Below are positions 500 to 20,751 of a DNA stretch of 64,000 bases, piece by piece. Origin of the DNA: Bacillus sp. es.036 (lineage in GTDB: Bacteria > Bacillota > Bacilli > Bacillales > Guptibacillaceae); contig NZ_PDIZ01000001.1 of NCBI RefSeq assembly GCF_002563635.1, positions 3,286,001 through 3,350,000 of the forward strand, given 5' to 3'. Below the pieces are notes generated by a model that had not been told where the DNA came from, searched no databases, and was given only the letters and a program-made list of their open reading frames with translations. Every line of letters begins with the position of its first letter. Within the stretch, counting starts at the first letter, position 1. The translations under genes were made by a program, and so were the position numbers.

Positions 500-525
500 G
501 GGGGTCAGACTCGGGTCTGACCCCC
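500..525. repeat. REP-like palindrome, copy A (hairpin 2 only)
   Basis: An 11-bp perfect inverted repeat with left arm GGGGGTCAGAC (500-510), loop TCGG and right arm GTCTGACCCCC (515-525). It is the GGGGTC hairpin of the dispersed element described at 597-670, without the partner hairpin. It sits just downstream of the rightward TspO-like gene. Confidence 0.85.
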
Positions 526-596
526 TCTCCCTCTCATTGTGCTCAATCCCTTACTGTGTAAGGGTTTTGCAGCTGGAATGCTTCACAATTAATGTG

Positions 597-670
597 AAAA
601 AGTGTCCTATGGTGGAGAACACTTTTTGTGGTTTTGTCTTTATGAGGGGTCAGGCTCGAGCCTGACCCCT
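597..670. repeat. REP-like composite palindrome, copy B
   Basis: Hairpin 1 has arms AAAAAGTGT (597-605) and ACACTTTTT (619-627). A spacer containing TTTTGTCTTT follows. Hairpin 2 is a perfect 26-bp palindrome (645-670) centred on CTCGAG with outer arms AGGGGTCAGG and CCTGACCCCT. The right half lies over the 3' end of the leftward gene at 650-1045 and supplies its stop codon. Read leftward, hairpin 1 is followed by a T-run, so the unit could also terminate transcription. Confidence 0.9.
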
Positions 671-1045
671 TTCCAAAATCGTTTGAACGAGCTGTTCTTC
701 GCTACCTTCCACTCTCTTAACTCCGCTTGTGTAGTAAAAGCTGCTCGCTTCTTTAGCGTTATGAAACCCTTCTTCATTAAAAAGGTAAACTGGGATATCA
801 CGACCAAGCGCAATGCCAATTTCAATATGGGTTCCCTTTCCTCCTGGAAGCAGAACAATAAGAATATCAGCTTTTTTTACTGCCTCTAATTCTGCTTCTC
901 CTATTGAAGCAAGTTCATCAAGCGTGGCGGCTTTTTCGTTTTTCGTCCAATCGTATGTATGCTTGAAGCCATGACGTTTCAATTCAGCAGCTAGTGTCTG
1001 AACATGTTGTTTGTTTTGAAAACTTGATGCGATGTAAAAGTTCAT
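650..1045 (-). CDS. nucleoside 2-deoxyribosyltransferase-like protein
   Basis: The protein has 131 residues. The start MNFYIASSFQNK, the central block around residue 60 (KKADILIVLLPGG, then KGTHIEIGIALG) and the Rossmann-like spacing match the small nucleoside 2-deoxyribosyltransferase-like family (PF05014). That family has a Phe/Tyr-rich beta strand 1 and a catalytic Glu in a GxHxExGxA context; here it reads GTHIEIGIAL. The substrate cannot be told from sequence. The last seven residues (ERGQARA) and the TGA stop are encoded by the palindromic repeat at 645-670, so the native C-terminus was probably altered by the repeat. It stands alone with no evident operon partner. Confidence 0.7.
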   Translation of the reverse strand: MNFYIASSFQNKQHVQTLAAELKRHGFKHTYDWTKNEKAATLDELASIGEAELEAVKKADILIVLLPGGKGTHIEIGIALGRDIPVYLFNEEGFHNAKEASSFYYTSGVKRVEGSEEQLVQTILERGQARA

Positions 1046-1254
1046 CTTTCTTTTCCTCCGTTCTCAATCCGTGACGAAGCACAAATCAGTATACACATAG
1101 TAGCCGTTAACCGCTACGTCTCCGTTACATCATTTTTTAGTTTCTTAGTAAGGGAGCGTTACCGTTAAAATTTCAAAAATAAGCGCCACATGCGAACAGC
1201 CCGTAACCATACATAGTGATGTAAGTAGAAGCACTATACGCTTCATTTATTCTC

Positions 1255-1533
1255 TCAATCAGCCGCAGCCAGCTGTTTTTGGAGTACTTTTTTTAATTTC
1301 CGTTCTTTTCGCTCTTCATACATCGGTGATCGTTTCATCTTTTTCATTTTCATTTTCCCAATCACATACCGTACAGACGTATTTTCCTGAACTGACTTGT
1401 TGTATTGAGGTTTTTCAACAAGCTCCACAAACCAGCCGTACGCCATCAGCGCCACAATATTTGCTTCAATTCGCTTCTCATCTGGTGGGTCGGCCCACCA
1501 AAACAAATCACCTGCTAATGCTAAAATCTCCAT
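1255..1533 (-). CDS. small hypothetical protein
   Basis: I do not recognise this 92-residue protein. It begins MEILALAGDLFWWADPPDEKR, has a mixed middle, and ends in a very basic stretch (KMKMKKMKRSP, then EERKERKLKKVLQKQ), which suggests nucleic-acid or membrane-surface contact. The ATG at 1533 has GGAAG five bases upstream. A TTG twelve bases further up (1545) is also open but would abut the GAGGAG, so the ATG is preferred. There is no signal peptide. It may be a lineage-specific cytoplasmic protein. Confidence 0.5.
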   Translation of the reverse strand: MEILALAGDLFWWADPPDEKRIEANIVALMAYGWFVELVEKPQYNKSVQENTSVRYVIGKMKMKKMKRSPMYEERKERKLKKVLQKQLAAAD

Positions 1534-1644
1534 AAACACTTCCAACTCCTCGCCCCCCTCTACTCATTCAATTTTACAATAATGACCAATCTATCTATAG
1601 ATACGAAATAGAAGGTGAAATTGTTTCAAAAGATCGATCAATGG

Positions 1645-1726
1645 AGTGTCCACAATACGTGGATTATTTCGCTATTATTGGGCGATTTGTCTTTGAAGGG
1701 GGTCAGGCTCGAGCCTGACCCCCTTC
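1645..1726. repeat. REP-like composite palindrome, copy C
   Basis: Hairpin 2 is a perfect 32-bp palindrome (1695-1726), the longest version in the window, with outer arms GAAGGGGGTCAGG and CCTGACCCCCTTC around CTCGAG. A TTTGTCTTTG spacer precedes it. A degenerate hairpin 1 lies further left (TCCAC 1649-1653 with GTGGA 1659-1663, inside an AGTGTCCAC context). It begins 14 bases beyond the stop codon of dsdA. Confidence 0.85.
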
Positions 1727-1739
1727 ATTACTATCACTT

Positions 1740-3020: not shown

Positions 3021-3062
3021 GGGTCCTTCACTCCTTTATTAAGCGTCCTTCCATCAAAAGAA

Positions 3063-3092
3063 AACGAGAGCTAGACTTTGTCCACTCTCGTT
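3063..3092 (-). terminator. intrinsic terminator of the leftward 3101-4954 gene
   Basis: An 8-bp stem AACGAGAG (3063-3070) / CTCTCGTT (3085-3092). Read leftward it is followed by TTTTCTTTTG. Confidence 0.75.
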
Positions 3093-3100
3093 CTGAAAAT

Positions 3101-4954
3101 TTATCTACTTAAAATCACATCTAACAAGTCATCTTCTACATCAAGAACGTCTTTCCCTCCAAATAGACCAAATTGATCGAAAGATTGTTCTTTTAGTAGA
3201 GTTACTGTTTCATCAGTTAGATCCCGACCAGGCTTTTGTGCTAAAAAGAGGGGCGCATCATTTTTGGCAGCGACGACTGCTCCTGAAAGAGCGTCAGGAA
3301 AATTGTATCCAGTCGCAAAGTAGGCTCTCTCATTCCCCATCTTTAGGTTCCTATTGATATCAACGTTCGTTTTGTATCGATCCTCTCCTGCATATCGCTT
3401 ATAATCGAGACCTTTCACCGCATTAGTACTTACAACATCACTACCGCCAACTACAATAACTTTATCAAAGGAGTTAATTTTTGCTTTTGTATCGTTATCC
3501 AGCTCACCATTACTATCTGTTAGAAATACTGGATATCCATTCTTCGCAGCATAAGGAGCTATGGATAAGGCATCAGGAAATTTGTGCCCATACGCAAGGA
3601 CTGCTGTATCACTTGAAAGCTTGGCTGAAATGATCGCTGCGGTATCATAGCGATTTTCACCACCCAAACGTTCAATGGTAATATTTTTGTTAATCGTTTT
3701 GATCTCTTTTACCACGTTCTCAGAAATGGCATTTTCACTTCCTAGAATGATAACTTTATTTGCATTTAGCCGCTTAAGCTCATCTTTAGTAGACTTTTCT
3801 AATACACTGCTTTTTGTTAGTAACAGAGGACCATCTTCCTGATATGCAAGTGGAGTTCCAGCAAGTGCATCTGGAAAGGCATCCCCTCTAGCTAGTACAA
3901 TAGTGTCTGCACCGTTCGGCCAGCCTTCTTGAGAGATCGCTACGGATGTCTCATAACGATCAGAACCTGACAACCGATGGATAAGAGGAAGTAAATCTGC
4001 AGATGCGATAAAAGCTTTCTTTCCATCTTCAAGCTTCACTTCATACCATGCTAGGTGTTGCAGAGGCATTTCTGATAAATTATCACCTGCAGCAGTGTTG
4101 TATTCATTCGACTTATCGCTCAATGGTTGACTTTGTAAAGTAACAACCTCACGCCCATCTGCTTTTGCTAATGACTTAGTCTCTGTCGAAGGACCCGCAC
4201 GGAAGTTAGCACCTTCTGCTGTAAACACAATATTTCCTTCTTTAAATGTTTGCGTTGAGTGATGAAGCACTTCTTCAGGCAACTCATAATGAGTCGTCTC
4301 AAAATACAAATTCGTATCTGTTGGATCCTCAGTATTGTATTTAAAATCACTTACTTCAAATCCAAATGGAATAGGTTCATAGTTTCTTTCACGAACTAAA
4401 AGACTGTAGCTATAGATATCTTTGAATACTTTCTCTTGATAAGCTTCTAGATTTCGTTCTCCAAATTTCTCATCATCTTCATTTTTGTAAATCGGACTGT
4501 TTACTTGCTTTTGGCCGTTATATGCCAGAACTGCAAAATACCAACTTTCGATAACATCACGGTCATTATCGTTTACCGTCGGAAGTTTACCAGCTTTTCC
4601 TTCAAATTTATCGTTCAGTATATCCAGGCCTCGCTGGATGTTATAGCGTAAGTCATTTTTTAATCTATCTTGTTCTGATTGAGGTGCATTGGTAACCTGC
4701 ATGATCCCAATTCCACCATCACCGTCTTCGTTCATTGCACTTTGATCCCAACCACTTTCCATTAAAGCAACGGCTTTAGCAACCTCAGGTGGAATCTCTC
4801 TCTTAATCGCTTCTTCTGTCAATATGTCACTAATCTCGTTATAAGAAAATTCTGCTGCATTCACGTTCATTTCACCAGTTACAAGAGACAAACCATTTCC
4901 TACCCCTGAAATTAAGAGAAATGCAACAACCAAACGAATTAATCCTTTTTTCAA
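3101..4954 (-). CDS. secreted lytic transglycosylase-like protein with SH3b and three CWB2 repeats
   Basis: The 617-residue protein starts with a signal peptide (MKKGLIRLVVAFLLISG, cleavage likely near NVNAAEF). Residues about 40-190 form an SLT/goose-lysozyme-like transglycosylase domain: the catalytic glutamate is in ALMESGWDQSA, and GIGIMQVT is the second conserved block. Residues about 243-325 look like a bacterial SH3 domain (GANFRAGPSTET). From about 327 to the end lie three cell-wall-binding type 2 repeats (RLSGSDRYETSVAI, then FPDALAGTPLAY and its relatives). Expected role: cleavage of glycan strands while anchored to a wall polymer. It is transcribed alone, with its own terminator, and is the first of six proteins here with this C-terminal cassette. 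Confidence 0.85.
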   Translation of the reverse strand: MKKGLIRLVVAFLLISGVGNGLSLVTGEMNVNAAEFSYNEISDILTEEAIKREIPPEVAKAVALMESGWDQSAMNEDGDGGIGIMQVTNAPQSEQDRLKNDLRYNIQRGLDILNDKFEGKAGKLPTVNDNDRDVIESWYFAVLAYNGQKQVNSPIYKNEDDEKFGERNLEAYQEKVFKDIYSYSLLVRERNYEPIPFGFEVSDFKYNTEDPTDTNLYFETTHYELPEEVLHHSTQTFKEGNIVFTAEGANFRAGPSTETKSLAKADGREVVTLQSQPLSDKSNEYNTAAGDNLSEMPLQHLAWYEVKLEDGKKAFIASADLLPLIHRLSGSDRYETSVAISQEGWPNGADTIVLARGDAFPDALAGTPLAYQEDGPLLLTKSSVLEKSTKDELKRLNANKVIILGSENAISENVVKEIKTINKNITIERLGGENRYDTAAIISAKLSSDTAVLAYGHKFPDALSIAPYAAKNGYPVFLTDSNGELDNDTKAKINSFDKVIVVGGSDVVSTNAVKGLDYKRYAGEDRYKTNVDINRNLKMGNERAYFATGYNFPDALSGAVVAAKNDAPLFLAQKPGRDLTDETVTLLKEQSFDQFGLFGGKDVLDVEDDLLDVILSR

Positions 4955-5105
4955 TTCATTCTCCCCTTTCCATCTTTTAGAAGTATAGCAGATTCAGAAG
5001 TTCCTATGGTGTATTTTGGAAACAATCTAGTGATTCATTCAAACGAAAGAAGTGATATAAACTTTTTCATAGAATTATCCCTCTCATTTTGCATCTTTAC
5101 ATAGT

Positions 5106-5173
5106 AAAAAAAGTGTCCGCCAGCGGCGGACACTTTTGCTTGTTTTGTCTTTTAGAGGGGTCTGCCCCCCCTC
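5106..5173. repeat. REP-like composite palindrome, copy D
   Basis: Hairpin 1 is perfect: AAAAGTGTCCGCC (5109-5121), loop AGC, GGCGGACACTTTT (5125-5137). The spacer contains TTTTGTCTTTT. Hairpin 2 is shortened to GAGGGG / CCCCTC (5155-5173), lacking the CAGGCTCGAG centre. It abuts the stop codon of the leftward NlpC/P60 gene. Read leftward, hairpin 1 is followed by eight Ts, a good intrinsic terminator. Confidence 0.85.
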
Positions 5174-7049: not shown

Positions 7050-7162
7050 CCAGATCCTCCTCATTCCAATTAAGTTGCTGCCCAAATATCGACACTCTGC
7101 CTATACTATCGGCTATAATTCAACAAAGTTTAAGCGATATCCTGTTATTTTTTCCTAAAAAT

Positions 7163-7220: not shown

Positions 7221-9977
7221 TTATTCCTGATATAAGCGCTGTTCGACTTTCTCATTTATTGCTGAGGGACCACCTAACAAGTTAAAGCCCGTCACATTTT
7301 TTATCGCTTCTACTGTTTCTAGAGGAAGCTCATCAGACTTCACTAACAAAAGTGGTGCACCTTCTTTTGCCGCAAGAACAGATCCTGCCAGGGCATCTGC
7401 AAAGCCAAAACCAGTGGCCAAATAAGCGGTTTTTGCATCTGGATAAAAAGCGGTTTTCACTTTAGCAGCCGTTGCAAATCGATTATCTCCCGCGATCCGA
7501 TTTGGTGATGGTAGATTACTATAAACCTTCTGCGTAATGACACTTTCGCCACCAATCACAATCGTCTCTTCAATGTTTTTCAATGCATTTTTCGTTTCCG
7601 CAGGCATGCTATCTTTATTGACTAATAAAATCGGAAAGCCTTGTTGCGCAGCATAAGGAGCGATTGCAAGAGCATCTGGAAAATTAAGACCATACGCAAC
7701 AATCGCTTTTTCAGGTGCTCCTCCCATGCGCTTCGCAATTTTCGCAGAAGTGTCATAACGATTTTCTCCACTAATCCGCTCGACTTCTAAGCCGAGTGTC
7801 TTTATTGCCTTTTCTGTTGTAGGTGAAATCGCATTTTCTCCACCAAGAATAATCGCTTTCTTCGCTTTAAGTCGCGCAATTTCTTTTTTTGTTTCTGTTG
7901 GAAGCTCATTTGTTTTCGCAAGCAGGATCGGTGCTTGTAACTGATATGCAAGTGGTGCCCCAGAAAGCGCGTCTGGAAAATCGAGACCTCTTGCGATGAC
8001 TACCGTTTCGGCTTGATTATAAGTTCTTGCACTTACATTCGCTGCTGTTTCAAAGCGATTCAGCCCTTCAATTCGGTCCACTGTGTTCGCTGACGTACTA
8101 ACATTTAATTTCGGTCCATTAGACGTTGCGTAGCCTTTATTGTCCATGGCTTCTACCTTAAAATCGTACGCCTTATCGGTCGCAAGCCCCTGAACCGTTA
8201 GCTTTCTCGTCGAGCCATCGACTTCTTTTAAGACGCTACCATTTTTATAGACCACATAGGAAGCAACCCCCGAATCATCAATGGCTTCCGGCCAATTTAA
8301 CGTGAGGCGATCATTTTTAATCATGGTCGCTGTCAGTTCTGCATTCTTAGACCATAATGGCGGCTGTTGATCTTCGCCATATGGCACTTTAACAGAAACT
8401 GTCATTGCATCACTTGATGGATCAAGAACGGTGACCGAAACACCTGAGCTTGCTCCTGAATACACTTTACTCGTTGGAGCTGTTGAGCTATTAAAGCGAT
8501 TATAACCGTTTCCGCTAAAATAATGGTCGTAATACAGTCGAAAAACTTGCTGCTGATCGAGTTCTGGATAACCAAGCCTGCTTTCGTTGGCCTCTTCGAT
8601 ATCGACCGCTTTATGTGCTTCATTATTGTTATTTTGACGATTCTTAAACTGCTGTTCATCAATATGCCAGATGGCAACCCCTGGCGCTGCTACTTCATCT
8701 GCTAACCCAATATCAAAACCAGTAAACTGACGATTTTCAATTAAAAAGTACTCTGATGGATCAGTCGTCTTCAATTTCAGCATAGACGGCTGTTCTGCTT
8801 TAAAACTCTTTACCTCGTATGACCCATTATTTTGCACGTCGATAGGTCGAACAAAGCCAAGCACCATTTTTGACCAAGGATCAAGATGCGTTGGATAAGT
8901 TCCTTGATCCTCACCGTTATGGGTCGTCCAAGAACCGCTTGCCATTAAACTATGAATGCCCACGCCCTGTGACGAGCCATCCGTATCATATAAATCTGGT
9001 AAACCGAGGTCATGCCCCATTTCATGTGCAATGATGCCGACCGTGGCCATGTGTCCACCATGTTTTTCTCCAAACATCGTATAGCTGCCACCTGTTTGAT
9101 ATGAGCTAATTTTCACTCCATCAAGCAGCGGCGCTTCGCTTTCATACAAGCTAGACATATGACCCCAAACGACTTTTCCCGTATCGCCATAGCTCGCTTC
9201 GCCACCAGCAACGATCGTGACAATATGTAATTCTTCTGAAGAAAGGGAGCCGTCTTTGTTTTGATCAAATTGCGCATAATTCACTTTTGCATTTGATGCC
9301 TTTAACGCTTCTTTCACGATTTGTGAATAGGTACTGTCAGAATTATTCGCCGTCTCAGGGCGAGGATGTGCTTTTGGAAGCGTCACTTTTACAATCCCAT
9401 CATTAGAGCCACTCCCTTCTGTTGCCCCTTTGAATCCTAACTTTCCTTTTGAAACTTCCTCATAGTAATGATTCAACGTACTTCCTTCCATCCCAAAGAA
9501 ACGATTCCGCCAATCTGCATCTGAATAGGCAATTTTCGCATCGGTATATTCCACTAATAAAACAAGCGTATTTTCCTGCTTCCCTGCACTCAATAAATCT
9601 ACTTGTTCTTCTGGATTCGGAATTTCTTTTTGCTTCATCCCTTCTTTCGGTTGAAGGTATCGTACTTCTTCAAGCTCTGCCGCATCAGATGGTTTATCAT
9701 CTATCCCATATTTAGCATTCGTTACTTGTAAACTCTGACCTACTATTTGAGCGTAATACCAATAGTGATCCGCTCCCATTTTTATCACAGCTTCATCACC
9801 TGTTGTCCACCAGTTCAGGTTTTCACTACCGCTTAGTGAAGCTTGAAAGGCTTCCCCAGATGGCTGAACAAGCTCCTGCTTTTCTTCTAGCGCAGGCATA
9901 GCGTTCGCATCATTTACCCCAATAATCATAAATAGACTACATAGAAGTAATCCAATCCCATAGATGTTTCTTTTCAT
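7221..9977 (-). CDS. secreted M6-family metalloprotease with Fn3 and three CWB2 repeats
   Basis: The 918-residue preproprotein has a signal peptide ending near NDANA. The zinc site HEMGHDLGLPDLYD (about residue 316) is the HExxHxxGxxD-type signature of M6 peptidases (immune inhibitor A relatives). A Ca-binding-like DQNKDGSLSSEE loop lies near 240. A fibronectin type III domain spans about 550-625 (NWPEAIDDSGVASYVVYKNG). Three CWB2 repeats fill about 632-918. Family knowledge: M6 enzymes degrade host or environmental proteins and are made as inactive precursors. The wall-binding tail suggests a surface-retained protease. It has its own terminator. Confidence 0.88.
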   Translation of the reverse strand: MKRNIYGIGLLLCSLFMIIGVNDANAMPALEEKQELVQPSGEAFQASLSGSENLNWWTTGDEAVIKMGADHYWYYAQIVGQSLQVTNAKYGIDDKPSDAAELEEVRYLQPKEGMKQKEIPNPEEQVDLLSAGKQENTLVLLVEYTDAKIAYSDADWRNRFFGMEGSTLNHYYEEVSKGKLGFKGATEGSGSNDGIVKVTLPKAHPRPETANNSDSTYSQIVKEALKASNAKVNYAQFDQNKDGSLSSEELHIVTIVAGGEASYGDTGKVVWGHMSSLYESEAPLLDGVKISSYQTGGSYTMFGEKHGGHMATVGIIAHEMGHDLGLPDLYDTDGSSQGVGIHSLMASGSWTTHNGEDQGTYPTHLDPWSKMVLGFVRPIDVQNNGSYEVKSFKAEQPSMLKLKTTDPSEYFLIENRQFTGFDIGLADEVAAPGVAIWHIDEQQFKNRQNNNNEAHKAVDIEEANESRLGYPELDQQQVFRLYYDHYFSGNGYNRFNSSTAPTSKVYSGASSGVSVTVLDPSSDAMTVSVKVPYGEDQQPPLWSKNAELTATMIKNDRLTLNWPEAIDDSGVASYVVYKNGSVLKEVDGSTRKLTVQGLATDKAYDFKVEAMDNKGYATSNGPKLNVSTSANTVDRIEGLNRFETAANVSARTYNQAETVVIARGLDFPDALSGAPLAYQLQAPILLAKTNELPTETKKEIARLKAKKAIILGGENAISPTTEKAIKTLGLEVERISGENRYDTSAKIAKRMGGAPEKAIVAYGLNFPDALAIAPYAAQQGFPILLVNKDSMPAETKNALKNIEETIVIGGESVITQKVYSNLPSPNRIAGDNRFATAAKVKTAFYPDAKTAYLATGFGFADALAGSVLAAKEGAPLLLVKSDELPLETVEAIKNVTGFNLLGGPSAINEKVEQRLYQE

Positions 9978-10082
9978 TATTTTCCCCCTAAAATTGTCGA
10001 GCGAACTTCACTACCACTTATACTCTATAAGTCTATCATTAGCGAGTTAAAATTTGCCATTATTCTGTATGTTTTTCCATGT

Positions 10083-10114
10083 AAAAGGGACCAGCTTTGA
10101 AGCTGCCCCCTTTT
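10083..10114 (-). terminator. intrinsic terminator of the SGNH hydrolase gene
   Basis: A stem of about 14 bp, AAAAGGGACCAGCTT / AGCTGCCCCCTTTT, with one or two mismatches. Both flanks are A/T-rich, so it may work in either direction. Confidence 0.7.
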
Positions 10115-11892: not shown

Positions 11893-14343
11893 TTATTTTT
11901 TAAGTTCGTCTACGATTTCTTTGCTAACGGCATTCTCGCCACCAAGTACATTGAAGTCATAAGCTTCCATATCCTCAACTGCTTCTGCTGTTTCTTTTGG
12001 AAGCATATCAGGTTTTACAAGAAGCATCGCTGCATTTTGCTTCGCTGCAAGAACCGATCCGGAAAGAGCATCCGCAAAGTTCATGCCTGTTGAAACGTAA
12101 ACGCGTGCGGAAGGATTTAAGTTTGTTGCGATATCAGCTGCCGTACCGAAACGGTTGTCTCCAGCATAGCGTTCTTCCGCATGTAGCTTCTTATCTAGCT
12201 TTCCGTTAACAGCCGTTTCGCCACCAACAATAATTGATCCATCAATGCCTCTAAGTGCATTGCCTGTTGCTGATGGAATTTCATCCGCTTCTGTTAAAAG
12301 AATTGGATAACCCTTCTGTGCTGCGTATGGCGCAATCGCAAGAGCATCAGGGAAGTTCATGCCATTTGCCACAATTGCCTTGTCTGGTGAGCCACCAAGA
12401 CGTGCAGCAATGTTTGCAGCTGTATCGAAACGGTTGTCACCTGCAATACGCTCAACGTCGATGCCCATTCCTTCAAGTTGGAACTTCACATAGTTGCTAA
12501 CTGCACTTGTCCCACCAAGAATAATGACATCTTTTGCCCCAAGACGTGCAATTTCTTCTTTCGCCATCTTGTTCAGCGAACCACTTTCTGTTAAAAGAAT
12601 TGGCGCATCATATTTATAAGCAAGTGGTGCTCCTGCTAGTGCATCCGGGAAAGAATCGCCGCGTGCGAGAACAACGGTATCAGCAGACTCCCAGCCTTCT
12701 TGTGAAATCTTTACTGAGGTTTCGTAGCGTGTTTCACCTTCGATACGCTCTGCGTCAGCTTCAACGATACGTGCTTCGTCTTTCGCTTTTACTGTTCCAA
12801 TTTCATCCAGATATTCTGTAAATACTTCAAAGTCTACAAAGAAAAGTTCTTCCATACGACCGTCAGCTGCTGCTTCACCCATTGCGTCATATCCGTCGCC
12901 GCCTTGAGCGATATATGCGTTTGTTGCAACAGTGTACATCGCCTCTGGATCAATGTCTTCATAGCCATTCTGAGTTTTCACATTTACATCGAGAATTCGC
13001 TCACCAGAAGGAAGATCTTTGTCAAAGGAATATTGAAGTCCTGATACTTGAGCGAAGCGCCCCTGTTCCGATTCAACCGCACTTACACCGTGCTCTAAAG
13101 AAGCGATAATTTCAGCACCTGTCATATCAAGTGTGACGAGATTGTTACCAAATGGCATCGTTGTTAACACTTCACCTAATGTGATTGGTCCTTCATCGAT
13201 TGATTCACGGATTCCTCCGCCGTTCGTGATGGCGATCGATGCATCTGTGTATTGCTGGGCTTTATAAAGCATGCCGTCCGTAATTAAGTTTCCTAGATTT
13301 GTTTCGCCTGTTCTAACTGATCCACGTTTACCGTTAAGATAAACTTCTGACTCTCCGACAACTTCTTTTTCAATTTCTTCAAGTGGTTTTTTCAACTCAT
13401 TGAAAAGATTTTGTGCCTCAGTATCCGCTTCGAAACTACCATCTGAACTAAGGTCTAGAAGTTCATTGTCCCATTCTGTTAGAACGCCTTCTTCATTGAA
13501 CGTTACTTCCAGATCACCTAAATATTTGCTATATTCATTGGCTTGTACAACAAGTGTTGGATCTTCAAATGTATCGACAACAACAGCCTCTTCGATTTTC
13601 GTATGGCTATGTCCCCCAACGACAACGTCAATGCCTTCGACCGTTTTAGCAAGCTCTACTTCAACCGTTTTTCCAAGGTGAGTGAGGGCAACGATTTTGT
13701 TTACGCCTTTATCCTGGAACATTTTCACCATTTTTTCTGCTTGCTCCTGATGGTTTTGGAAAGAGATTGTTTCCCCTGGGCTTGAAAGTTCATCTGTCGA
13801 TTCAATTGTTAGACCGAATACCCCAACTTCTTCTCCGTTCACATTAAGAATAACTGCTGGATAGATCGTGCCGTCATCTCCTGTCATCGCCATTTCATTT
13901 TTGTAGAGAGGGCTAAGATAAGGGTCCTGGCTGTAATCAATGTTTGAGCTTACGATTGGGAATTTTGTTTGCTTTACGAATTCAGAGAACGTTTTTGGGC
14001 CTTCATCGAATTCATGGTTACCTGGTACCATTGCATCGTATTTCATCATGTTCATAAATTGAACATCAGCAAGGCCTTTGTATTTATTGAAAAAGAGGGT
14101 ACCAGAGAAAACATCTCCAGCATCTAATAGAATCGTATTTTCACGAGCCGCACGGATTTCCTCGACAGCTGTTAGGCGTCTTGGCGCATTGTCCAGGTGC
14201 GCGTGTGTATCGTTTGTATGCATAATTGTAAGATCAAAATCGCCTGCTGCCGCTTCCGCAGGGGTTGAGGGTGATGCTGCTGCGATCCCCATTGCAAGTG
14301 CAGCTGTTGATAGAACGCCGAAAAGAGGTTTTTTCATATTCAT
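11893..14343 (-). CDS. secreted 5'-nucleotidase / UDP-sugar hydrolase family protein with three CWB2 repeats
   Basis: The 816-residue protein starts MNMKKPLFGVL; the first ATG has GGGAAGGG nine bases upstream. The signal peptide ends near TPAEAAAG. An N-terminal metallophosphoesterase domain (about 35-300) has its metal ligands in MHTNDTHAHLD, LLDAGDVFSGT, VPGNHEFDEG, THLG and GGHSHT. The 5'-nucleotidase C-terminal domain (about 340-500) includes TNLGNLITDG and ITNGGGIRESI. Three CWB2 repeats run from about 527. The expected role is extracellular nucleotide dephosphorylation for phosphate or nucleoside scavenging. It forms a logical pair with the adjacent secreted nuclease: nucleic acid to nucleotides, then nucleosides plus phosphate. 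Confidence 0.92.
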   Translation of the reverse strand: MNMKKPLFGVLSTAALAMGIAAASPSTPAEAAAGDFDLTIMHTNDTHAHLDNAPRRLTAVEEIRAARENTILLDAGDVFSGTLFFNKYKGLADVQFMNMMKYDAMVPGNHEFDEGPKTFSEFVKQTKFPIVSSNIDYSQDPYLSPLYKNEMAMTGDDGTIYPAVILNVNGEEVGVFGLTIESTDELSSPGETISFQNHQEQAEKMVKMFQDKGVNKIVALTHLGKTVEVELAKTVEGIDVVVGGHSHTKIEEAVVVDTFEDPTLVVQANEYSKYLGDLEVTFNEEGVLTEWDNELLDLSSDGSFEADTEAQNLFNELKKPLEEIEKEVVGESEVYLNGKRGSVRTGETNLGNLITDGMLYKAQQYTDASIAITNGGGIRESIDEGPITLGEVLTTMPFGNNLVTLDMTGAEIIASLEHGVSAVESEQGRFAQVSGLQYSFDKDLPSGERILDVNVKTQNGYEDIDPEAMYTVATNAYIAQGGDGYDAMGEAAADGRMEELFFVDFEVFTEYLDEIGTVKAKDEARIVEADAERIEGETRYETSVKISQEGWESADTVVLARGDSFPDALAGAPLAYKYDAPILLTESGSLNKMAKEEIARLGAKDVIILGGTSAVSNYVKFQLEGMGIDVERIAGDNRFDTAANIAARLGGSPDKAIVANGMNFPDALAIAPYAAQKGYPILLTEADEIPSATGNALRGIDGSIIVGGETAVNGKLDKKLHAEERYAGDNRFGTAADIATNLNPSARVYVSTGMNFADALSGSVLAAKQNAAMLLVKPDMLPKETAEAVEDMEAYDFNVLGGENAVSKEIVDELKK

Positions 14344-14497: not shown

Positions 14498-14520
14498 AGG
14501 CGGAGAGAGCCCGCCCTTTC
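14498..14520 (-). terminator. possible weak terminator of the nuclease gene
   Basis: A short GC stem AAGGCGG / CCGCCCTT just downstream of the nuclease stop codon, followed leftward by CTCATTTTC. The stem has a bulge and the T-run is modest. Confidence 0.4.
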
Positions 14521-14526
14521 CTTACT

Positions 14527-17500
14527 TTAGTTGTTCTTTAAATCGTTCATAACGTCATCACTCACGGCGTTAGGACCGCCGAGGATGTGGAAATTATGAA
14601 TGTCATTTTCATCAATGGCTTCTGCAATCTTCTCAGGAACTTCATCCTTCTTCACTAGAAGGATGGCTGCCTCTTCTTTTGCTGCAAGGACAGAACCAGA
14701 AAGCGCATCGGCAAATTTCACACCAGTGGCTACAATCGCTGTATCTGCATCTGGGGTTAGAACAGTTGCGATCGATGCTGATGTGGCATAGCGGTCATCT
14801 CCACTAATGCGTACGGCATTGGAAAGATTGTCGACGATCGTTTCACTAATGGCATTTTCTCCGCCAACTACGATTTGTTCGTCTGTTGTGTTTAAAATTT
14901 TATTCGATACGGCTGGAAGCTTATCGTCAGCTGTTAGCACGATCGGGTAGCCATTTTTTGCTGCATAAGAAGCAACAGAAAGGGCATCTGGGAAGTTAAA
15001 GGCATTCGCCAAGATCGATTTTTCAGGCGTTCCGTCAAGCTTCGCTGCAATGTTCACAGCTGTTTCATAACGCGTTTCTCCTCCGATACGATCTACTTTC
15101 AGCCCAAGACCTTTTAGTTCATATTCCGTGTAAGAAGAAATTGCGGATGTTCCACCAAGAACGATCGCTTTCTTCGCACCAAGACGCTCAATTTCTTTCT
15201 TAACAGCTGCGTTTAGCCTGTTTTGTTCGGTTAAAAGGATTGGGGCATCGTATTTGTATGCAAGTGGTGCTCCTGCAAGGGCATCTGGGAACTCATCGCC
15301 TCTTGCAATCACAACGGTATCTGCACTTTCCCAACCTTTTTTCGAAATTTCTACCGCTGTTTCATAACGCGTTTCTCCTGAAGTACGGTCTACGCTGTTT
15401 TCCATTTGAATCTTCGCAAGCACCGGATCGTGGTCACTTGCACGTCCATCTGCTTCACTAAAATCAGAGTTAATGTTAATGCTATCAATCATCGTGCGTT
15501 TTGCTAGATTGTTAGATACGAGAATATGATCGAGCACTTGCGCGTTACCTTGATAGTTGTACGTGTAACGTTGCTCTGTTGGAAGCTTATTGATCATGTT
15601 TGTTAAAACATCGCCTTCAAGCGTTTCGATTGGCTTTGAAAATTCAAAGTCATTCAAGTCACCTAGAACAACAACGTTGCCACCATCCATGTTCGTCACA
15701 ACGTCATTAACAAAGTTGTTTACGACCGATGCTTGCTTGATGCGCTGTACTTCACTTCCTAAAACAACAGGGTGATCCGCGCCAAATAGTGCGCCATCTC
15801 CACCTTTTGAGTTGAAGTGATTCGCGACAACGACCACTTTTTCACCGTTAAATTCAAACTCCGCTGCAAGTGCTTTACGAGAATCTTCAAAGGCTTCATT
15901 TGTTGGATCAATGCGACCAGGATTAAGCGTTAGGCCGTTTTCATCCACGCTAACGGAAGACGTTGCATCGCCAGATTTCTTCTCAGGGAAATCAACACGA
16001 TCTGGATTATAGATGAAACCAACGCGAATATTTCCGCCAGGCTGTCCGCCGTCCGTTTTATCGGCTGGTGCGATATCAGCAAACTTGTACGTCGGGCCGC
16101 CTGCTTCTTCAATCGCTTTAATGATTGCTTCGTAAGACTCGTTTGCCTTTGTCGTGCCATCATCTGTTGGACCGTTGTTATCTTGTACTTCGATTAAGCC
16201 AACGATGTCTGGTGTCTTCATGTTCTTTACGATTGATTCAGCAATTTTGCCTGTTTTCTCTTCTCCAACACCCGGGTAGTAGTTTTCGATGTTGTAAGAA
16301 GCAATCGTTAAATCGCCTGGTGCCGATTCGATTGTTGTCACTTCACGCTCGGTATCCCCATCAATAACCGTAGGGAACGTTCCCGTTGGACGAATTTTAA
16401 AGTTGCTGTAGTCGTAACTCACGTTTCCTGTAACGGATCCGTTAAGTTGATCTCCAGTTGTTACGTCAATATCAATGCCATCAACATCAATGAGGAGACG
16501 CTCAGGATTAGGGTCGTCTGCTGTCAGCAGAAGTCCGTTCGCACGAGTGAACAGTTGATCTTCACTTGCGTTCACATAGACTGGTAGCTCATCGTATTTC
16601 ACTGGACCTGTTACCTTTGCATCTGGAATCTCAATGAGCATCCCTTCAAGACTTTCGTAAAAGTCCAGTCCATCTGTTTTTGGATCAAATGTCTTCATTT
16701 CATCGTCTTCTACGATTTCAGTTGGAGGTGTGCGGTCTTCTCCAATCACGATTGCTTCTGGTAGTGTGTTTCCTGAAGAAGCAACCGTTATGCTTGAAGC
16801 TGTAATTTGAGTCGTTAGAAGATCTTTTGCATCGCTATAACCACCTTCACGATACTCTTTTACCTGACCGTCTACTTCTACTTTGTCACCAACGCTTACA
16901 CCAGCTCCACCGCTTTTGTAAACGTAGATGCCTTCTGAAGTAGCGACGTTATCGTCCGGGTTTTCTTCTTGCATATAGAATGCGTTATTGCCGTCTTTTG
17001 CTGTCACGATCCCAGCAATTTTTGTAACAGCCATTCCATCATATGGAGAAGAATGGCCTGCACCTTGAATGCCGTGAATGCTAATGCCGTCAGCAGATTT
17101 TAGAACTGTGTAGTCGAAAGTTGCGACTTCACTTGTTTGACCATCTTTTGCTGCAACTGCTTTGATTGTTGTATCTTCTGTTAATTCAATAGGAGCTGTG
17201 TATTCTGTGCTTTCAGCAGTTGGTTCGCTACCGTCTGTTGTGTAATGAACCGTTGCGCCTTCTTCTGCTGTCGCAAGTTTGACCATTGTGCCTTCAAGAA
17301 CAGATCCTGACGCAGGATTTGCTGTTACCGAGAAAGCTTTTTCGATCACATCAGCGGCGCTACGAGGTACGAGTTTATATTCGTTATAGTTATAGTCGAT
17401 AACGCCTTTAAGAAGTTCATACGTTTTGCCGACTTCAAGAAGTGATTTGTCGTTAGGCTTAATGACGAATTCACCTGAATCGTCTTTCGCTGTGAAGTTT

Positions 17501-18354
17501 CCATTGCTGTCGACTGATTGAACCGTAACGTCTTTAAATTGAGTGAATTCAGCTTCGTGCTGTTCACCATTTTCTTTGGAAAGGTCTGTCGATTTAAGGG
17601 ACTGAGGGGACGGGATGCCTTTATCTTCAGTTGTTATAACAACTGAAGAAGCGCTTGTCTTGACCTGTTGCATTCCGTAGTAGTCAGACATAGTTCCTTC
17701 AACAATAACTTCATCGCCAGGCTTAGCTGTAATGCCCGCTGCACGTACAATAATTCCTGCAGTGTCATCCTGAATAAAGAGGTTTGTTTCGCCACCAGTT
17801 TCGAAGGCTGCAGTGGCAGTTCCTTGAATTTTTACTAGTGAATCGTTTGCTGCTTTTCTAGCATCTGTAATGGCTGAGAGTTCTGGTTCTGGTTCTGGGT
17901 CAGGGTCTGGGGCTGTGCCGTCAGAAAAAGTGTAAGCTGTTGGCCCTTTCAGACCTGGTACACCGAAGTATGTTGCGAGGTCTCCAGTAATTTGAATCTT
18001 CTTACCTTTGTTTGCGGGATTAGCTACTAAATTGAGCTCGTCTCTTAAAGATCCTTTAGGTAGTTGAACCGGCATAATCTTGTCTGACTGGGTTTCACTT
18101 GAAGAATCTGCAATGGCAATGTTCGTTTCTACTCCATTTGCGCCATCTAAGTTATAAGAAGAGCTGCTTGAAGTTGTTCCTACAATATAGCCTTCTACTG
18201 TTGCTGAACCAGTATTGTTGGCGATCGCTTCCCCAACAGAAATCACGTCTTCAGCAGAAGCCGAAAGCTGTGAGACTGGCAATGCGAAAAAACTAAGAAC
18301 CATTGAGAATATTAGCGCAAAGCTAATAAAACGACTGGTTGATCTTCGTTTCAA
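14527..18354 (-). CDS. secreted multidomain extracellular nuclease (EEP family) with three CWB2 repeats
   Basis: The 1275-residue protein starts at a TTG (18354) with GGGGGGA seven bases upstream; the nearby ATG is out of frame. After the signal peptide (ending near LSASAED) come two OB-fold-like modules (about 38-150 and 160-240), another OB-like stretch, a chitobiase/hexosaminidase C-terminal-type repeat (about 345-420, VHYTTDGSEPT) and further OB-type segments. The endonuclease/exonuclease/phosphatase domain (about 680-978) has ASYNIENYYPG, GLIEVQDN, ANHFNSKGGDG, VVLGDLNDF and ASDHDPVLA, as in ExeM/NucH-like nucleases and B. subtilis YhcR. CWB2 repeats run from about 986. It probably degrades extracellular DNA/RNA at the cell surface. 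A 26-bp palindrome lies inside the gene at 17624-17649. Confidence 0.88.
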   Translation of the reverse strand: MKRRSTSRFISFALIFSMVLSFFALPVSQLSASAEDVISVGEAIANNTGSATVEGYIVGTTSSSSSYNLDGANGVETNIAIADSSSETQSDKIMPVQLPKGSLRDELNLVANPANKGKKIQITGDLATYFGVPGLKGPTAYTFSDGTAPDPDPEPEPELSAITDARKAANDSLVKIQGTATAAFETGGETNLFIQDDTAGIIVRAAGITAKPGDEVIVEGTMSDYYGMQQVKTSASSVVITTEDKGIPSPQSLKSTDLSKENGEQHEAEFTQFKDVTVQSVDSNGNFTAKDDSGEFVIKPNDKSLLEVGKTYELLKGVIDYNYNEYKLVPRSAADVIEKAFSVTANPASGSVLEGTMVKLATAEEGATVHYTTDGSEPTAESTEYTAPIELTEDTTIKAVAAKDGQTSEVATFDYTVLKSADGISIHGIQGAGHSSPYDGMAVTKIAGIVTAKDGNNAFYMQEENPDDNVATSEGIYVYKSGGAGVSVGDKVEVDGQVKEYREGGYSDAKDLLTTQITASSITVASSGNTLPEAIVIGEDRTPPTEIVEDDEMKTFDPKTDGLDFYESLEGMLIEIPDAKVTGPVKYDELPVYVNASEDQLFTRANGLLLTADDPNPERLLIDVDGIDIDVTTGDQLNGSVTGNVSYDYSNFKIRPTGTFPTVIDGDTEREVTTIESAPGDLTIASYNIENYYPGVGEEKTGKIAESIVKNMKTPDIVGLIEVQDNNGPTDDGTTKANESYEAIIKAIEEAGGPTYKFADIAPADKTDGGQPGGNIRVGFIYNPDRVDFPEKKSGDATSSVSVDENGLTLNPGRIDPTNEAFEDSRKALAAEFEFNGEKVVVVANHFNSKGGDGALFGADHPVVLGSEVQRIKQASVVNNFVNDVVTNMDGGNVVVLGDLNDFEFSKPIETLEGDVLTNMINKLPTEQRYTYNYQGNAQVLDHILVSNNLAKRTMIDSININSDFSEADGRASDHDPVLAKIQMENSVDRTSGETRYETAVEISKKGWESADTVVIARGDEFPDALAGAPLAYKYDAPILLTEQNRLNAAVKKEIERLGAKKAIVLGGTSAISSYTEYELKGLGLKVDRIGGETRYETAVNIAAKLDGTPEKSILANAFNFPDALSVASYAAKNGYPIVLTADDKLPAVSNKILNTTDEQIVVGGENAISETIVDNLSNAVRISGDDRYATSASIATVLTPDADTAIVATGVKFADALSGSVLAAKEEAAILLVKKDEVPEKIAEAIDENDIHNFHILGGPNAVSDDVMNDLKNN
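17624..17649. other. 26-bp perfect palindrome inside the nuclease coding region
   Basis: The left half TCTTCAGTTGTTA is exactly complementary to the right half with no loop. It encodes SVVITTED in the nuclease and is not shared with the GGGGTC element family. A protein-binding site or chance are both possible. Confidence 0.6.
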
Positions 18355-18486
18355 ATTTCATCCCCCCGGATATGTAGTCGAATTTTGGTGATAGTCCCAC
18401 CAATTGTCAGTATACAATAACTTTAGGCCCAAATGTGTAAAAATAGCGTAAATTGTCTAACTTTAGAATGCGCTTACATTATATAG

Positions 18487-18555
18487 GCGGGGTCAGACCC
18501 CCCTTAAAGACAAAACCGCTCTTTTCAGTTCTTTAGTCCACGCTGACGGGACACT
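18487..18555. repeat. REP-like composite palindrome, copy E (inverted, degenerate)
   Basis: Read on the minus strand, the order is a GTGTCC / GGAC hairpin 1 relic (18536-18555), a TTTTGTCTTT spacer (18506-18516 on plus as AAAGACAAAAC), then a short hairpin 2, GGGGTC-A-GACCCC (18489-18501). This is the reverse of copies B, C, D and G. The intergenic stretch 18355-18880 otherwise holds only A/T-rich sequence and the terminator at 18703-18734. Confidence 0.7.
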
Positions 18556-18702
18556 CTACCTATCAGTAATTAACCAATATTGAGTGCTTTTCATTGTAAA
18601 GATTATATAAATTTAATATATGCCAATAGGTTTACTAGTTTAGCTTCGAAGTGTTCGCTTGTTTCTATACAAGTCTAAAGAACTAGTCTTGCTCATTAAA
18701 AA

Positions 18703-18734
18703 AACCACCGTATCGATGGCTCGATAAGGTGGTT
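18703..18734 (-). terminator. intrinsic terminator downstream of the dprA-like gene
   Basis: AACCACCGTATCGA (18703-18716) pairs with TCGATAAGGTGGTT (18721-18734) with one mismatch. Read leftward it is followed by TTTTTTTAATG. Confidence 0.8.
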
Positions 18735-18880
18735 AAGAGGCAGGTTTATCTTCTTCTTTCTTACATCACTTCCCTGATGGGTTGGATCCATCATGCTCTA
18801 GTTAGGGAAAGATGTTCTTGAAGATCCTTGAGGGATCAAAACACGTTAGGCTTGCGAAGGTTTTTCATTGTTTGGTGGTT

Positions 18881-19738
18881 TCAGAGAATAGGAAGAATCT
18901 CTTTTTCAACCGATTGAAAGCTATGATAAGGGCGTATACCTTGATTGATTAGACAGTTTGTCCCCTGCCTGAATCGAGCGTCGTTGCTTATAAAAACAAA
19001 GACTTTTCTTGCATGCTTTCGAGCAAAGTGAGCGGTCGTCATCGCACCACTTTTTACGTTAGCTTCTAAAATCACAACATGACTTGACCATGCGCTGATT
19101 AACGCGTTTCGCTGAATAAATTGCTTTGGTGCAGGTGCTGTGCCAGGTGGATACTGCGAAATGACAGCGCCTTCATTAATGACTGCTTCGTAGAGCGAGC
19201 GGTGCTCTTTCGAATAACACTCATCAACCCCAGTTGCAACAAAAGCAATCGGTTGCCCACTATTTGCGAGGCAGGCAGTGTGAGCAGCATGATCGATTCC
19301 TTTCGCGAGACCGCTAATAACAGGGATGCTCAGGCTTGAGAGTCTGGTGGATAACTCTTCCGCAGCATATCGTGCGTGATTGGAACAAAAACGGGAACCA
19401 ACAATACCGACAGAAGGTAAGCAAGGTTTGATATGACCTTTGACGTATAAAAGAACTGGCGATTCAGCAACATCTTTTGCATAACTTGGATATAGCGGGT
19501 CATCCCGGGGTAAAAGCCAGATCTCCTTTTGCTGAACAAGGTCAAGAATCCGCTTCGATTTCTCAAGAGATCGCGTTGCCTCAATGGCTTCGCGTGCTCG
19601 ACGAGGGATTCCTACTTCCTTAAGTTCAGATGGAGAGGCGTTATAGACTCGTTCTGGATTTCCGAAAGTGCCCAATAGTTTCTTTTGCGTTATAGGGCCC
19701 ACGTAGGGAATCGAACTTAGCCAGATCCAGCGCTCCAT
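18881..19738 (-). CDS. dprA: DprA/Smf-like DNA-processing protein
   Basis: The 285-residue protein has an N-terminal helix-hairpin-helix/SAM-like part (LSSIPYVGPITQKKLLGTFG, residues 6-60) and a Rossmann-like DprA domain. Its motifs are VGIVGSRFCSNHAR (about 109), ISGLAKGIDHAAH, FVATGVDECY, SQYPPGTAPAPKQFIQRNALIS and EANVKSGAMTTAHFA. In known bacteria DprA loads RecA on incoming single-stranded DNA during transformation. The usual Bacillus neighbours (topA, trmFO, codY) are absent. Instead it lies 47 bases downstream of a RAYT transposase gene on the same strand with no terminator between, so the two are probably co-transcribed. It could be the cell's only DprA or a second paralogue. Confidence 0.85.
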   Translation of the reverse strand: MERWIWLSSIPYVGPITQKKLLGTFGNPERVYNASPSELKEVGIPRRAREAIEATRSLEKSKRILDLVQQKEIWLLPRDDPLYPSYAKDVAESPVLLYVKGHIKPCLPSVGIVGSRFCSNHARYAAEELSTRLSSLSIPVISGLAKGIDHAAHTACLANSGQPIAFVATGVDECYSKEHRSLYEAVINEGAVISQYPPGTAPAPKQFIQRNALISAWSSHVVILEANVKSGAMTTAHFARKHARKVFVFISNDARFRQGTNCLINQGIRPYHSFQSVEKEILPIL

Positions 19739-19785
19739 TCATTCACTTCTCTTTCATGATAAATTTTTAGAGTAAGGCTTTTTAT

Positions 19786-20403
19786 TTACTGCGGTAAATT
19801 GGAGAGCAGATAAATCTTTTTTCCTTTCCATTCTGGCAATTGTTGCACAAGATCTGGTGGAAATGATGGTTTCTCATTTTCGACGTAGCGCTGATAAGCT
19901 TCCCGTGAAGGTTTTTGAAACAATGAGAGTATGTAATCAGGGTAAGCGTGCGGATTCTTTCGATATGAAATATAAGCATGATAACTGCTCCACATATAGT
20001 CCGCTGGCTTAGCAACCATTCGGGCTTTAACTGGATTAAGGTGAATGTATTTACTTACGTCAATTTCATAATCAATTGAATCAAGCAGTTCAGCATTGTA
20101 GCGACCTTGAAAAACATGGCCTGTGTACTCATATTTGTCGTTGAAATATCTAGCATAGTTGGAGTTGATCACTTTCATGATTTCACCAGGGGGATGGTCG
20201 AAGGTTTCGATGGAGAGATGCACATGGTTAGTCATGAGACAGTATACGTGTAGGCGAAATGGAAAGGCGAGACGAGCTTGTTCTAGAATTTGAAAATACT
20301 TTTGACGATCGATTCGTTCTTCAAACAACGGTGCTTTTCGATTTCCACGGCAGATAATATGATACTTTGCACCAGGAAACCAGGTTCGTTTCTTACGAGG
20401 CAT
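19786..20403 (-). CDS. REP-associated tyrosine transposase (RAYT, Y1/IS200-like)
   Basis: The 205-residue protein belongs to the Y1 transposase fold (PF01797). The HUH motif is NHVHLS with H60 and H62. Other RAYT landmarks are GHVFQGRY (about 95-102) and KYIHLNPVKA, where Y119 is the likely nucleophile. The start has AAAGGAG eight bases upstream, so expression is plausible. No IS200-type subterminal ends or second orf (tnpB) are seen, which fits a domesticated RAYT rather than an autonomous IS. Family knowledge: RAYTs bind and cleave single-stranded REP hairpins. Two GGGGTC palindromes lie 180-350 bases upstream, and more are scattered nearby. Probably one transcript with the following dprA-like gene. 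Confidence 0.88.
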   Translation of the reverse strand: MPRKKRTWFPGAKYHIICRGNRKAPLFEERIDRQKYFQILEQARLAFPFRLHVYCLMTNHVHLSIETFDHPPGEIMKVINSNYARYFNDKYEYTGHVFQGRYNAELLDSIDYEIDVSKYIHLNPVKARMVAKPADYMWSSYHAYISYRKNPHAYPDYILSLFQKPSREAYQRYVENEKPSFPPDLVQQLPEWKGKKIYLLSNLPQ

Positions 20404-20582
20404 TCGAATGACTCCTTTGGCAAGGAAAATGGGGAATTTCTACTATAGCGGGGCTGATATTTGTAGTATACCACTTTTCAAGAATTTGGGAATAGTTAAT
20501 TAATAAATTATTCAGAAATATTTTTTAATTATTTTGAAGGAATATAGAGAGAGAGGTAATAGAGGGAATAAGGGGGAGCGGT

Positions 20583-20610
20583 AGGGGGTCAGGTACGAAC
20601 CTGACCCCCT
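20583..20610. repeat. REP-like palindrome, copy F (hairpin 2 only)
   Basis: AGGGGGTCAGGT (20583-20594), loop ACGA, ACCTGACCCCCT (20599-20610). A GTAG tetranucleotide overlaps the 5' foot (20581-20584), as in classical REP sequences, but the other copies lack it. It lies 180 bases upstream of the RAYT start codon. Confidence 0.85.
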
Positions 20611-20680
20611 CACACTCCTTTATCCCGCAAACACATATACACCATGGCTTTTCAGCTTATTAAAGGTGATTTGCTAATGA

Positions 20681-20751
20681 AAAAGTGTCCACCTGAGGTG
20701 GACACTTTTGGGGTGTTGTCTTTTCGTGGGGTCAGGCTCGAGCCTGACCCC
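20681..20751. repeat. REP-like composite palindrome, copy G
   Basis: Hairpin 1 is perfect: AAAAGTGTCCACC (20681-20693), loop TGA, GGTGGACACTTTT (20697-20709). The spacer contains TTGTCTTTT. Hairpin 2 (20728-20751) is a perfect 24-bp palindrome centred on CTCGAG. Compared with copy D, the two hairpin 1 stems differ at paired positions (CCGCC/GGCGG against CCACC/GGTGG), so pairing has been preserved. It lies 23 bases past the amylase stop codon. The 20404-20773 interval holds only copies F and G. Confidence 0.92.

What the first reader, a model, noticed from the sequence alone, without database searches (positions are those of the whole stretch)
500..20751. A family of REP-like composite palindromes with a RAYT transposase in a Gram-positive genome
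Seen: seven copies (500-525, 597-670, 1645-1726, 5106-5173, 18487-18555, 20583-20610, 20681-20751). Five share the layout hairpin 1 (AAAAGTGTCC.../...GGACACTTTT), spacer with TTGTCTTT, hairpin 2 (GGGGTC...GACCCC). The stem of hairpin 1 differs between copies D and G at paired positions, so structure has been selected or recently copied. Established: RAYT enzymes recognise and cleave REP hairpins in single strands, best known in Proteobacteria. Inference: the RAYT at 19786-20403 mobilises these elements. All seven copies fall in the first 21 kb; I saw none in the last 43 kb.
Basis: partly seen in the sequence, partly recalled or inferred. Interest (0 to 1): 0.8.

Follow-up and report, generated by a model that had tools for sequence, protein, structure and literature searches.

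The report
Local hairpin repeats beside their transposase
A marine Bacillus relative carries families of short DNA hairpins that crowd round the gene of a matching single-strand DNA enzyme, much as REP repeats do in some Proteobacteria, but here the crowding is old and each family has its own stretch of chromosome.

Summary
In detail: all seven hairpin sites are real and none lies in the last 43 kb. Two corrections. And the window catches one end of a ~49-kb patch that stops at the RAYT.

The gene at 19786-20403 is RAYT-like: HUH and Y---NP invariant, closest fold TnpA-REP (4er8), under purifying selection. A second RAYT in the genome has a different repeat family. Each family crowds round its own RAYT and hardly round the other's; a Neobacillus genome shows the same. 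A unit sits upstream of this RAYT in 11 of 12 genus genomes that have it.

Current mobilisation is not shown: 0 of 135 comparable site pairs were empty; one genome without the RAYT has 56 copies, another with a decayed RAYT has 3. Stems are kept by compensatory change and most hairpins lie at stop codons. Best reading: an old RAYT-repeat system that seeded copies locally, now persisting as 3'-end hairpins. New variant of a known kind.

The parts
   Evidence: same order and period as units at chromosome 3276896 and 3282180 and at window 20585-20751
1643..1722 (+). copy C: degenerate hairpin 1 (core at 1648), tag TTGTCTTT 1687-1694, hairpin 2 1699-1722
   Evidence: orthologous copies in G004, G005, G007, G008, G009
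5106..5173 (+). copy D: hairpin 1 5109-5137 (terminator-like on both strands), tag 5145-5152, short hairpin 2 5155-5173
18487..18555 (-). copy E, reverse orientation: weak hairpin 2, tag TTGTCTTT 18513-18506, degenerate hairpin 1
   Evidence: (z only -1.8); site also occupied in relatives
   Evidence: present in 11 of 12 RAYT-bearing genus genomes at about -340/-195 from the start codon
19786..20403 (-). RAYT-like HUH/Y1 transposase R1, 205 aa

Best explanation
These are REP-like elements of a RAYT system in a Bacillus-like genome. Inferred working: the HUH/Y1 enzyme R1 binds single-stranded hairpins that carry a 5' TTGTC tag (TTGTC-N7-GGGGTCAGG hairpin), cuts and rejoins them, and in the past seeded new copies preferentially within ~50 kb of its own gene, so each RAYT gained a patch of its own repeats. 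Copies that landed just after stop codons survived. Hairpin 1 can serve as an intrinsic terminator there, and its stems are kept paired by compensatory change. Shown here: anatomy, covariation, territories, the conserved unit beside R1, 3'-end placement, age. Inferred: binding, cleavage, local seeding, terminator role.
For: RAYT fold, motifs and selection. Family A within 50 kb of R1: 15 of 39 (0.90 expected), family B 0 of 46; family B within 50 kb of R2: 19 of 46 (1.06 expected), family A 2 of 39. Another genus: in Neobacillus sp. DY30, 7 of 21 cognate repeats lie in the 38 kb round its RAYT (about 0.13 expected, by hand). Unit upstream of R1 in 11 of 12 genomes. Tag plus hairpin within 700 bp upstream of 17 of 32 RAYT loci (7 of 8 in the genus group L088-L095, 10 of 24 others) against 21 of 478 control stretches. 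Copies within a patch resemble each other in the loop (1.34 differences within, 2.58 between; 0 of 5000 shuffles). Hairpin-1 covariation in 57 copies: 77.5% of cells paired against 62.4% shuffled and 43-46% slid; 205 two-sided changes against 92 shuffled and 53-102 slid. Hairpin 2 overlapping or within 30 nt of a stop codon: 16 of 24 and 7 of 11, random intergenic 0.16.
Against: None of 135 mapped site pairs empty (350 tried, 215 did not map on both sides; 'filled' was scored loosely, by a half-motif in the gap), so no insertion was caught. G006 has no R1 and 56 hairpin-2 copies. G001 has R1 (74% identity) but the tag at 2 of 8 copies and hairpin 1 at 0 of 8. No GT[AG]G foot family-wide. 24 of 39 family-A copies lie beyond 50 kb of R1, most in two patches (0.46-0.53, 3.00-3.06 Mb) without R1. 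Patches are inherited across the genus, so genus members are not independent replicates. 15 of 32 RAYT loci lack the tag-hairpin pattern upstream.
Confidence: 0.6

Rival explanations
1. They are host 3'-end structures (terminators and mRNA-end hairpins) kept by selection on gene expression; the RAYT is a chance neighbour.
For: Hairpin 2 overlaps or lies within 30 nt of a stop codon in 23 of 35 copies; hairpin 1 of copy D passes a terminator scan on both strands, and a small hairpin inside copy C (1669-1685) passes too; stems covary; sites are shared by related species.
Against: Two families keep to the surroundings of two different RAYTs, and a Neobacillus RAYT shows the same. Hairpin 2 has no T-run. 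Ordinary terminators would not share a conserved core, tag and 145-bp unit. Hairpin 1 of copies B, C, E and G did not pass the terminator scans.
Confidence: 0.15
2. RAYT-born in the past, now independent: the enzyme seeded the copies long ago, and selection at 3' ends alone keeps them. This shares the past seeding with the best explanation, so the two odds overlap.
For: No empty site in 135 mapped pairs; G006 keeps 56 hairpin-2 copies without R1, and in its patch most lack tag and hairpin 1 (2 and 5 of 19 keep them).
Against: R1 itself is under purifying selection (dN/dS 0.11-0.20) and keeps a unit beside it in 11 of 12 genomes, so enzyme and repeat still seem coupled. Where R1 decayed (G012) the repeats nearly vanished.
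Confidence: 0.3
3. The repeats were spread by segmental duplication or gene conversion, or by another transposase, not by R1.
For: Loop types are patch-specific, which gene conversion would also give. In G009 two doublets look collapsed to one hairpin, as recombination between repeats would do.
Against: In the alignment of the four paralogous units the linkers are weakly conserved while hairpins, tag and spacing are kept. R2 sits with another repeat family, and by eye the two 258-aa RAYT-like genes with none.
Confidence: 0.1

Closest known systems
RAYT/TnpA-REP with REP sequences (REPtron), mostly Proteobacteria (PMC2817692, PMC6006769, PMC8266576; passages seen)
   Same: HUH-Y1 enzyme with Y---NP signature and the 4er8 fold; palindromes beside its gene and elsewhere; crowding near the gene was reported for Thauera and Marinomonas
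   Different: No GT[AG]G foot (a TTGTC tag 7 nt before the hairpin instead), 27-59 copies in R1-bearing genomes, and a 168-bp unit with two end palindromes plus hairpin 1; the crowding here is old and inherited, whereas the papers explain theirs by recent arrival of the rayt gene
TIRYT/TIRtron with GGGGWSAS repeats (PMC3733652; section on tyrosine transposases read in full, other passages seen, figures not held)
   Same: RAYT-like gene with non-GTAG repeats; GGGGTCAG fits the printed consensus GGGGWSAS; moderate family size
   Different: Published repeats flank the gene as terminal inverted repeats; here a two-ended unit lies upstream only. Whether any Bacillaceae gene is in that paper's figures could not be seen
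REPIN (PMC3116915; passages seen)
   Same: Two REP-like hairpins at a fixed spacing as the unit
   Different: REPIN doublets are inverted repeats and were reported as randomly distributed in extragenic space; these are local, with extra hairpins between the ends
IS200/IS605 (IS608, ISDra2)
   Different: The gene has no near-identical copies (best paralogue 50%) and the repeats do not carry it

Membership tests
RAYT / TnpA-REP (class 2 TnpA-Y1) | HUH motif and single catalytic Tyr with Y---NP signature | tested here: met
   H60, H62, Y119, N123, P124 invariant in 22 sequences; signature as printed in PMC6006769
RAYT / TnpA-REP (class 2 TnpA-Y1) | TnpA-REP fold rather than IS200 TnpA | tested here: met
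RAYT / TnpA-REP (class 2 TnpA-Y1) | reaches NCBIfam REP_Tyr_transpos curated cut-off | tested here: not met
   58.4 bits against cut-off 80; Pfam Y1_Tnp cut-off met
RAYT / TnpA-REP (class 2 TnpA-Y1) | own repeat family beside the gene | tested here: met
   unit upstream in 11 of 12 genomes (one of its hairpins decayed in G004), one hairpin in the twelfth; whole-genome clustering
RAYT / TnpA-REP (class 2 TnpA-Y1) | cleaves its single-stranded repeat | not testable with these tools
   needs protein work
canonical REP | GT[AG]G at the foot of the hairpin | tested here: not met
   by eye, GTAG directly before hairpin 2 in 4 of the 40 copies printed, in one of them sharing a G with the hairpin; GTGG was not counted
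canonical REP | high copy number (usually over 100 per genome) | tested here: not met
   3-59 hairpin-2 places per genome in 14 genomes at <=1 mismatch
canonical REP | extragenic palindromes | tested here: met
   mostly intergenic, next to stop codons, though 6 of 24 in the main region overlap a simply predicted ORF by more than 60%
REPIN | inverted REP doublet, fixed spacing, as mobile unit | tested here: inconclusive
   fixed spacing in four paralogous units, but each hairpin is itself nearly symmetric and no movement was seen
TIRYT/TIR | repeat motif GGGGWSAS | tested here: met
   GGGGTCAG against the consensus printed
TIRYT/TIR | repeats on both sides of the gene | tested here: not met
   47 bp without hairpin between R1 and the next gene downstream; copy E lies beyond that gene
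IS200/IS605 insertion sequence | multiple near-identical mobile gene copies | tested here: not met
   best paralogue 50% identical
intrinsic terminator | GC stem followed by T-run | tested here: inconclusive
   hairpin 1 of D passes on both strands; that of B, C, E, G not flagged, though another hairpin within C is
known structured RNA | match to an Rfam family | tested here: not met
   five matches with E 0.22-0.92, all far below their gathering scores, in window 1-21000

The most novel reading that the evidence does not exclude
RAYTs in this group act in cis over tens of kilobases: each keeps a private chromosomal territory of hairpins for the life of a genus, not by fresh insertion but by copying or re-templating resident hairpins in place. 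That would explain perfect stems of ever-changing sequence, patch-specific loops, and loss of the tag or of the hairpins where the RAYT is lost.
Probability: 0.25. Interest if true: 0.75.

Novelty: new variant of a known kind. Interest (0 to 1): 0.5.

Why it matters
Why bacteria keep RAYTs, which do not seem to move themselves, is an open question. Here are two RAYT-repeat pairs in one chromosome with separate territories, plus natural losses in sister species. That makes it testable whether a RAYT works locally, whether it maintains its hairpins, and what the hairpins do at gene ends. It also points to RAYT-repeat pairs in Bacillaceae: the words Bacillus and Firmicutes do not occur in the main text of three RAYT papers searched for them (PMC6006769, PMC2817692, PMC8266576), and PMC3733652 names Bacillus twice, of which I saw one, about Bcr1 elements.

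Tried and rejected
A narrower pattern first suggested that both genomes without R1 had lost family A (7 and 2 copies). A wider pattern showed this was wrong for G006 (56 copies, in its patch of a GGGGTCAGAC type), so that argument was withdrawn. A bias of repeat strand with replication was considered and dropped: family B is mostly on + both where GC skew is negative (3.05-3.17 Mb) and where it is positive (0.49-0.51 Mb); orientation follows the neighbouring gene better. Rfam gave nothing above threshold. phmmer against PDB sequences gave nothing; the fold comparison did. Segmental duplication was judged unlikely from the poorly conserved linkers between paralogous units; paralogous flanks were not searched systematically. 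The Foldseek 'pdb' search itself never ran. Papers: passages of PMC3733652, PMC6006769, PMC2817692, PMC3116915, PMC8266576 and PMC8049555 were seen (section 16 of the first in full, outline of the second); nothing else was read. Searches for RAYT or REP terms with Bacillus, Firmicutes, Bacillaceae or Bacillales listed no paper whose title or abstract start shows a Bacillaceae RAYT-repeat pair; one search also listed PMC3390384, which I did not open; the library holds open-licence papers only.

Rows dropped before counts: one search used 46 of 51 family-B rows (two were the other strand of a counted place, three were 2-mismatch hits). One search used 35 of 39 family-A places, 33 of them in patches (four 2-mismatch places left out). 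Searches used 57 of the 59 hairpin-1 copies listed; those were picked by their core, so the four core pairs are paired largely by construction. One search used 15 hand-picked own-genome copies with a recognisable core. Alignment A4 left out one RAYT relative whose stretch holds a stop and did not use every locus. The list outputs were cut, but their counts per genome were whole.
Full report
WHAT IS THERE. The window is bases 3286001-3350000 of contig 1 of a 4.34-Mb genome of the Pseudalkalibacillus group: the closest named RAYT relatives are 97% and 92% identical in two P. hwajinpoensis strains, 92% in Bacillus sp. RAR_GA_16 and 90% in P. spartinae (NCBI now files P. hwajinpoensis as Guptibacillus, Bacillota). 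All seven hairpin sites are at the stated places and most fold far better than shuffles; copy 5 does not (z -1.8).

ANATOMY. Aligning doublets showed that sites 1+2 and sites 6+7 are each one unit of 167-169 bp: hairpin 2a, ~70 nt with a weak third hairpin, hairpin 1, tag TTGTCTTT, hairpin 2b, with 143-145 bp from one hairpin 2 to the next in the own genome. Two more such units lie 4 and 9 kb left of the window, and 20 distinct unit sequences, many of them orthologues, were found in the fetched stretches of the genus. Copies C, D and E are short forms (hairpin 1-tag-hairpin 2). A covariance model from copies 2, 4 and 7 gave 31 matches at E<=1 in the whole genome; all but one very weak match at 222 kb fall in 2.997-3.307 Mb, and 7 of the 10 minus-strand ones overlap a plus-strand one. 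Hairpin 2 alone (<=2 mismatches) has 39 places: 13 at 0.464-0.532 Mb, 8 at 2.997-3.057, 15 at 3.258-3.307, 2 at 3.453 and one at 58 kb.

STRUCTURE IS KEPT. Outside the conserved core GTCC-N9-GGAC the arms of hairpin 1 differ from copy to copy yet often pair: paired runs average 5.33 nt in 15 own-genome copies against 1.33 when arms are swapped between copies (0 of 5000 permutations); six of the 15 have no run at all and one has a single pair. In 57 copies of six genomes 77.5% of cells pair against 62.4% in shuffles and 43-46% with slid partners, and 205 cells show two-sided changes against 92 and 53-102. At one site the arm reads GCCGTAAA, GCCGCAAA and GCCATAAA in three species with the partner changed to match each time.

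TERRITORIES. Beside R2 lies another repeat, family B (TTCGACAAAT..CGGG[TC]GGTGACAGGCAC). Within 50 kb of R1 there are 15 of 39 family-A copies and 0 of 46 family-B copies. Within 50 kb of R2 there are 19 of 46 B and 2 of 39 A. About one of each would be expected by chance. The nearest neighbour is of the same family for 71 of 82 copies (shuffled mean 40.7, maximum 62). Against a simple picture, the other 24 family-A copies lie farther off, most in two patches without R1, and family B has further patches at 0.29-0.60 Mb. Loops are alike within a patch and differ between patches. G008 and G009 show matching patches; these are inherited, not independent. A separate genus: in Neobacillus sp. DY30, whose RAYT is 54% identical, 7 of 21 copies of its own repeat lie at 5.291-5.329 Mb round the RAYT at 5.308 Mb; the other 14 are elsewhere. 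Among 32 RAYT loci, tag plus hairpin lies within 700 bp upstream in 17 (7 of 8 in L088-L095, 10 of 24 others), against 21 of 478 control stretches. The full hairpin 1-tag-hairpin 2 order was found in only two loci outside the genus group, L101 and L116.

LINK TO R1 AND ITS LIMITS. R1 orthologues occur in 12 of 14 genus genomes (in G013 the frame ends early). A unit (both hairpin 2s, hairpin 1, tag) lies upstream in 11 of the 12, with hairpin 2a decayed in G004; G001 has one hairpin 2 only. G012 holds a decayed R1 at the orthologous place and 3 hairpin-2 copies; G006 has lost R1 and most of the next gene, yet has 56 copies; the rest have 27-59. That G006 lost R1 rather than never had it is inferred: its neighbouring proteins are mostly closer to the window's than those of G001, which has R1. 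In G006 the copies of this patch mostly lack the tag (2 of 19 keep it, against 71 of 106 in seven R1-bearing genomes), but G001 also has it at only 2 of 8. So the two losses had different outcomes. Family B stands at 26 and 24 copies in G006 and G012 (19-48 in the other twelve).

MOBILITY. For patch elements in six genomes, 350 site comparisons were tried: 215 did not map on both sides, 135 were filled by a loose criterion (a half-motif in the gap), none was empty. In G009 two doublets look collapsed to one hairpin. Insertion is therefore old or rare.

PLACE AND LIKELY ROLE. Hairpin 2 overlaps or lies within 30 nt of a stop codon in 16 of 24 and 7 of 11 copies, against 0.16 for random intergenic positions (simple ORF calls). 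Hairpin 1 of copy D is terminator-like on both strands; that of the other copies was not flagged. The likely outcome is survival of copies at gene ends, where they do little harm or help end the transcript; this is inference.

KNOWN OR NEW. The enzyme is a RAYT-like protein; the repeats work like REPs but fail two canonical REP features (GT[AG]G foot, high copy number). GGGGTCAG fits the GGGGWSAS motif of TIRYT repeats (PMC3733652). Crowding of REPs near a rayt gene is in print for Thauera (PMC2817692) and Marinomonas (PMC8266576), read there as following acquisition or recent arrival. Here it is shared by a genus whose R1 genes reach dS near 1 from the window's copy, so recent arrival does not fit. 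PMC3116915 reports random placement of REP doublets in Pseudomonas fluorescens SBW25. PMC8049555 reports more REPINs in E. coli genomes with a RAYT than without.

Noticed in passing
window 3101-26344: Six large minus-strand proteins share related repeats at the DNA level (3101-4954, 7221-9977, 10119-11741, 11893-14343, 14527-18354, 20774-26344), probably cell-wall-binding repeats (family recalled, not searched), with other genes between.
   Followed up: no
window 650-1045: A predicted nucleoside 2-deoxyribosyltransferase-like gene ends inside hairpin 2 of copy 2, so its last codons are made of repeat sequence.
   Followed up: no
window 18881-19738: A dprA-like gene next to the RAYT may be an extra paralogue: G012 has a second dprA-like gene elsewhere, and in G006 only a fragment lies at this site while another dprA-like gene lies elsewhere.
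   Followed up: partly
window 10065-10110: A 61% match to the hairpin 2 region (AAAGGGACCAGCTTTGAAGCTGCCCCC), perhaps a chance hairpin or a decayed copy.
   Followed up: no
G007 (fetched stretches L172-L175), site matching chromosome 3282140-3282205: The repeat's linker carries about nine tandem copies of a 13-bp unit (TGTTCTTTGATGG); G009 has about three of a related one.
   Followed up: no
G000:C1:3073039-3073146 (L054): A family-B repeat sits directly before a family-A hairpin with an enlarged palindromic loop, where the two territories meet.
   Followed up: no
L003, L004 (G000:C1:3230 and 3208 kb): Two further RAYT-like genes of 258 aa have a longer C-terminal part; by eye no repeat of either family in 500 bp up or 350 bp down.
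   Followed up: partly
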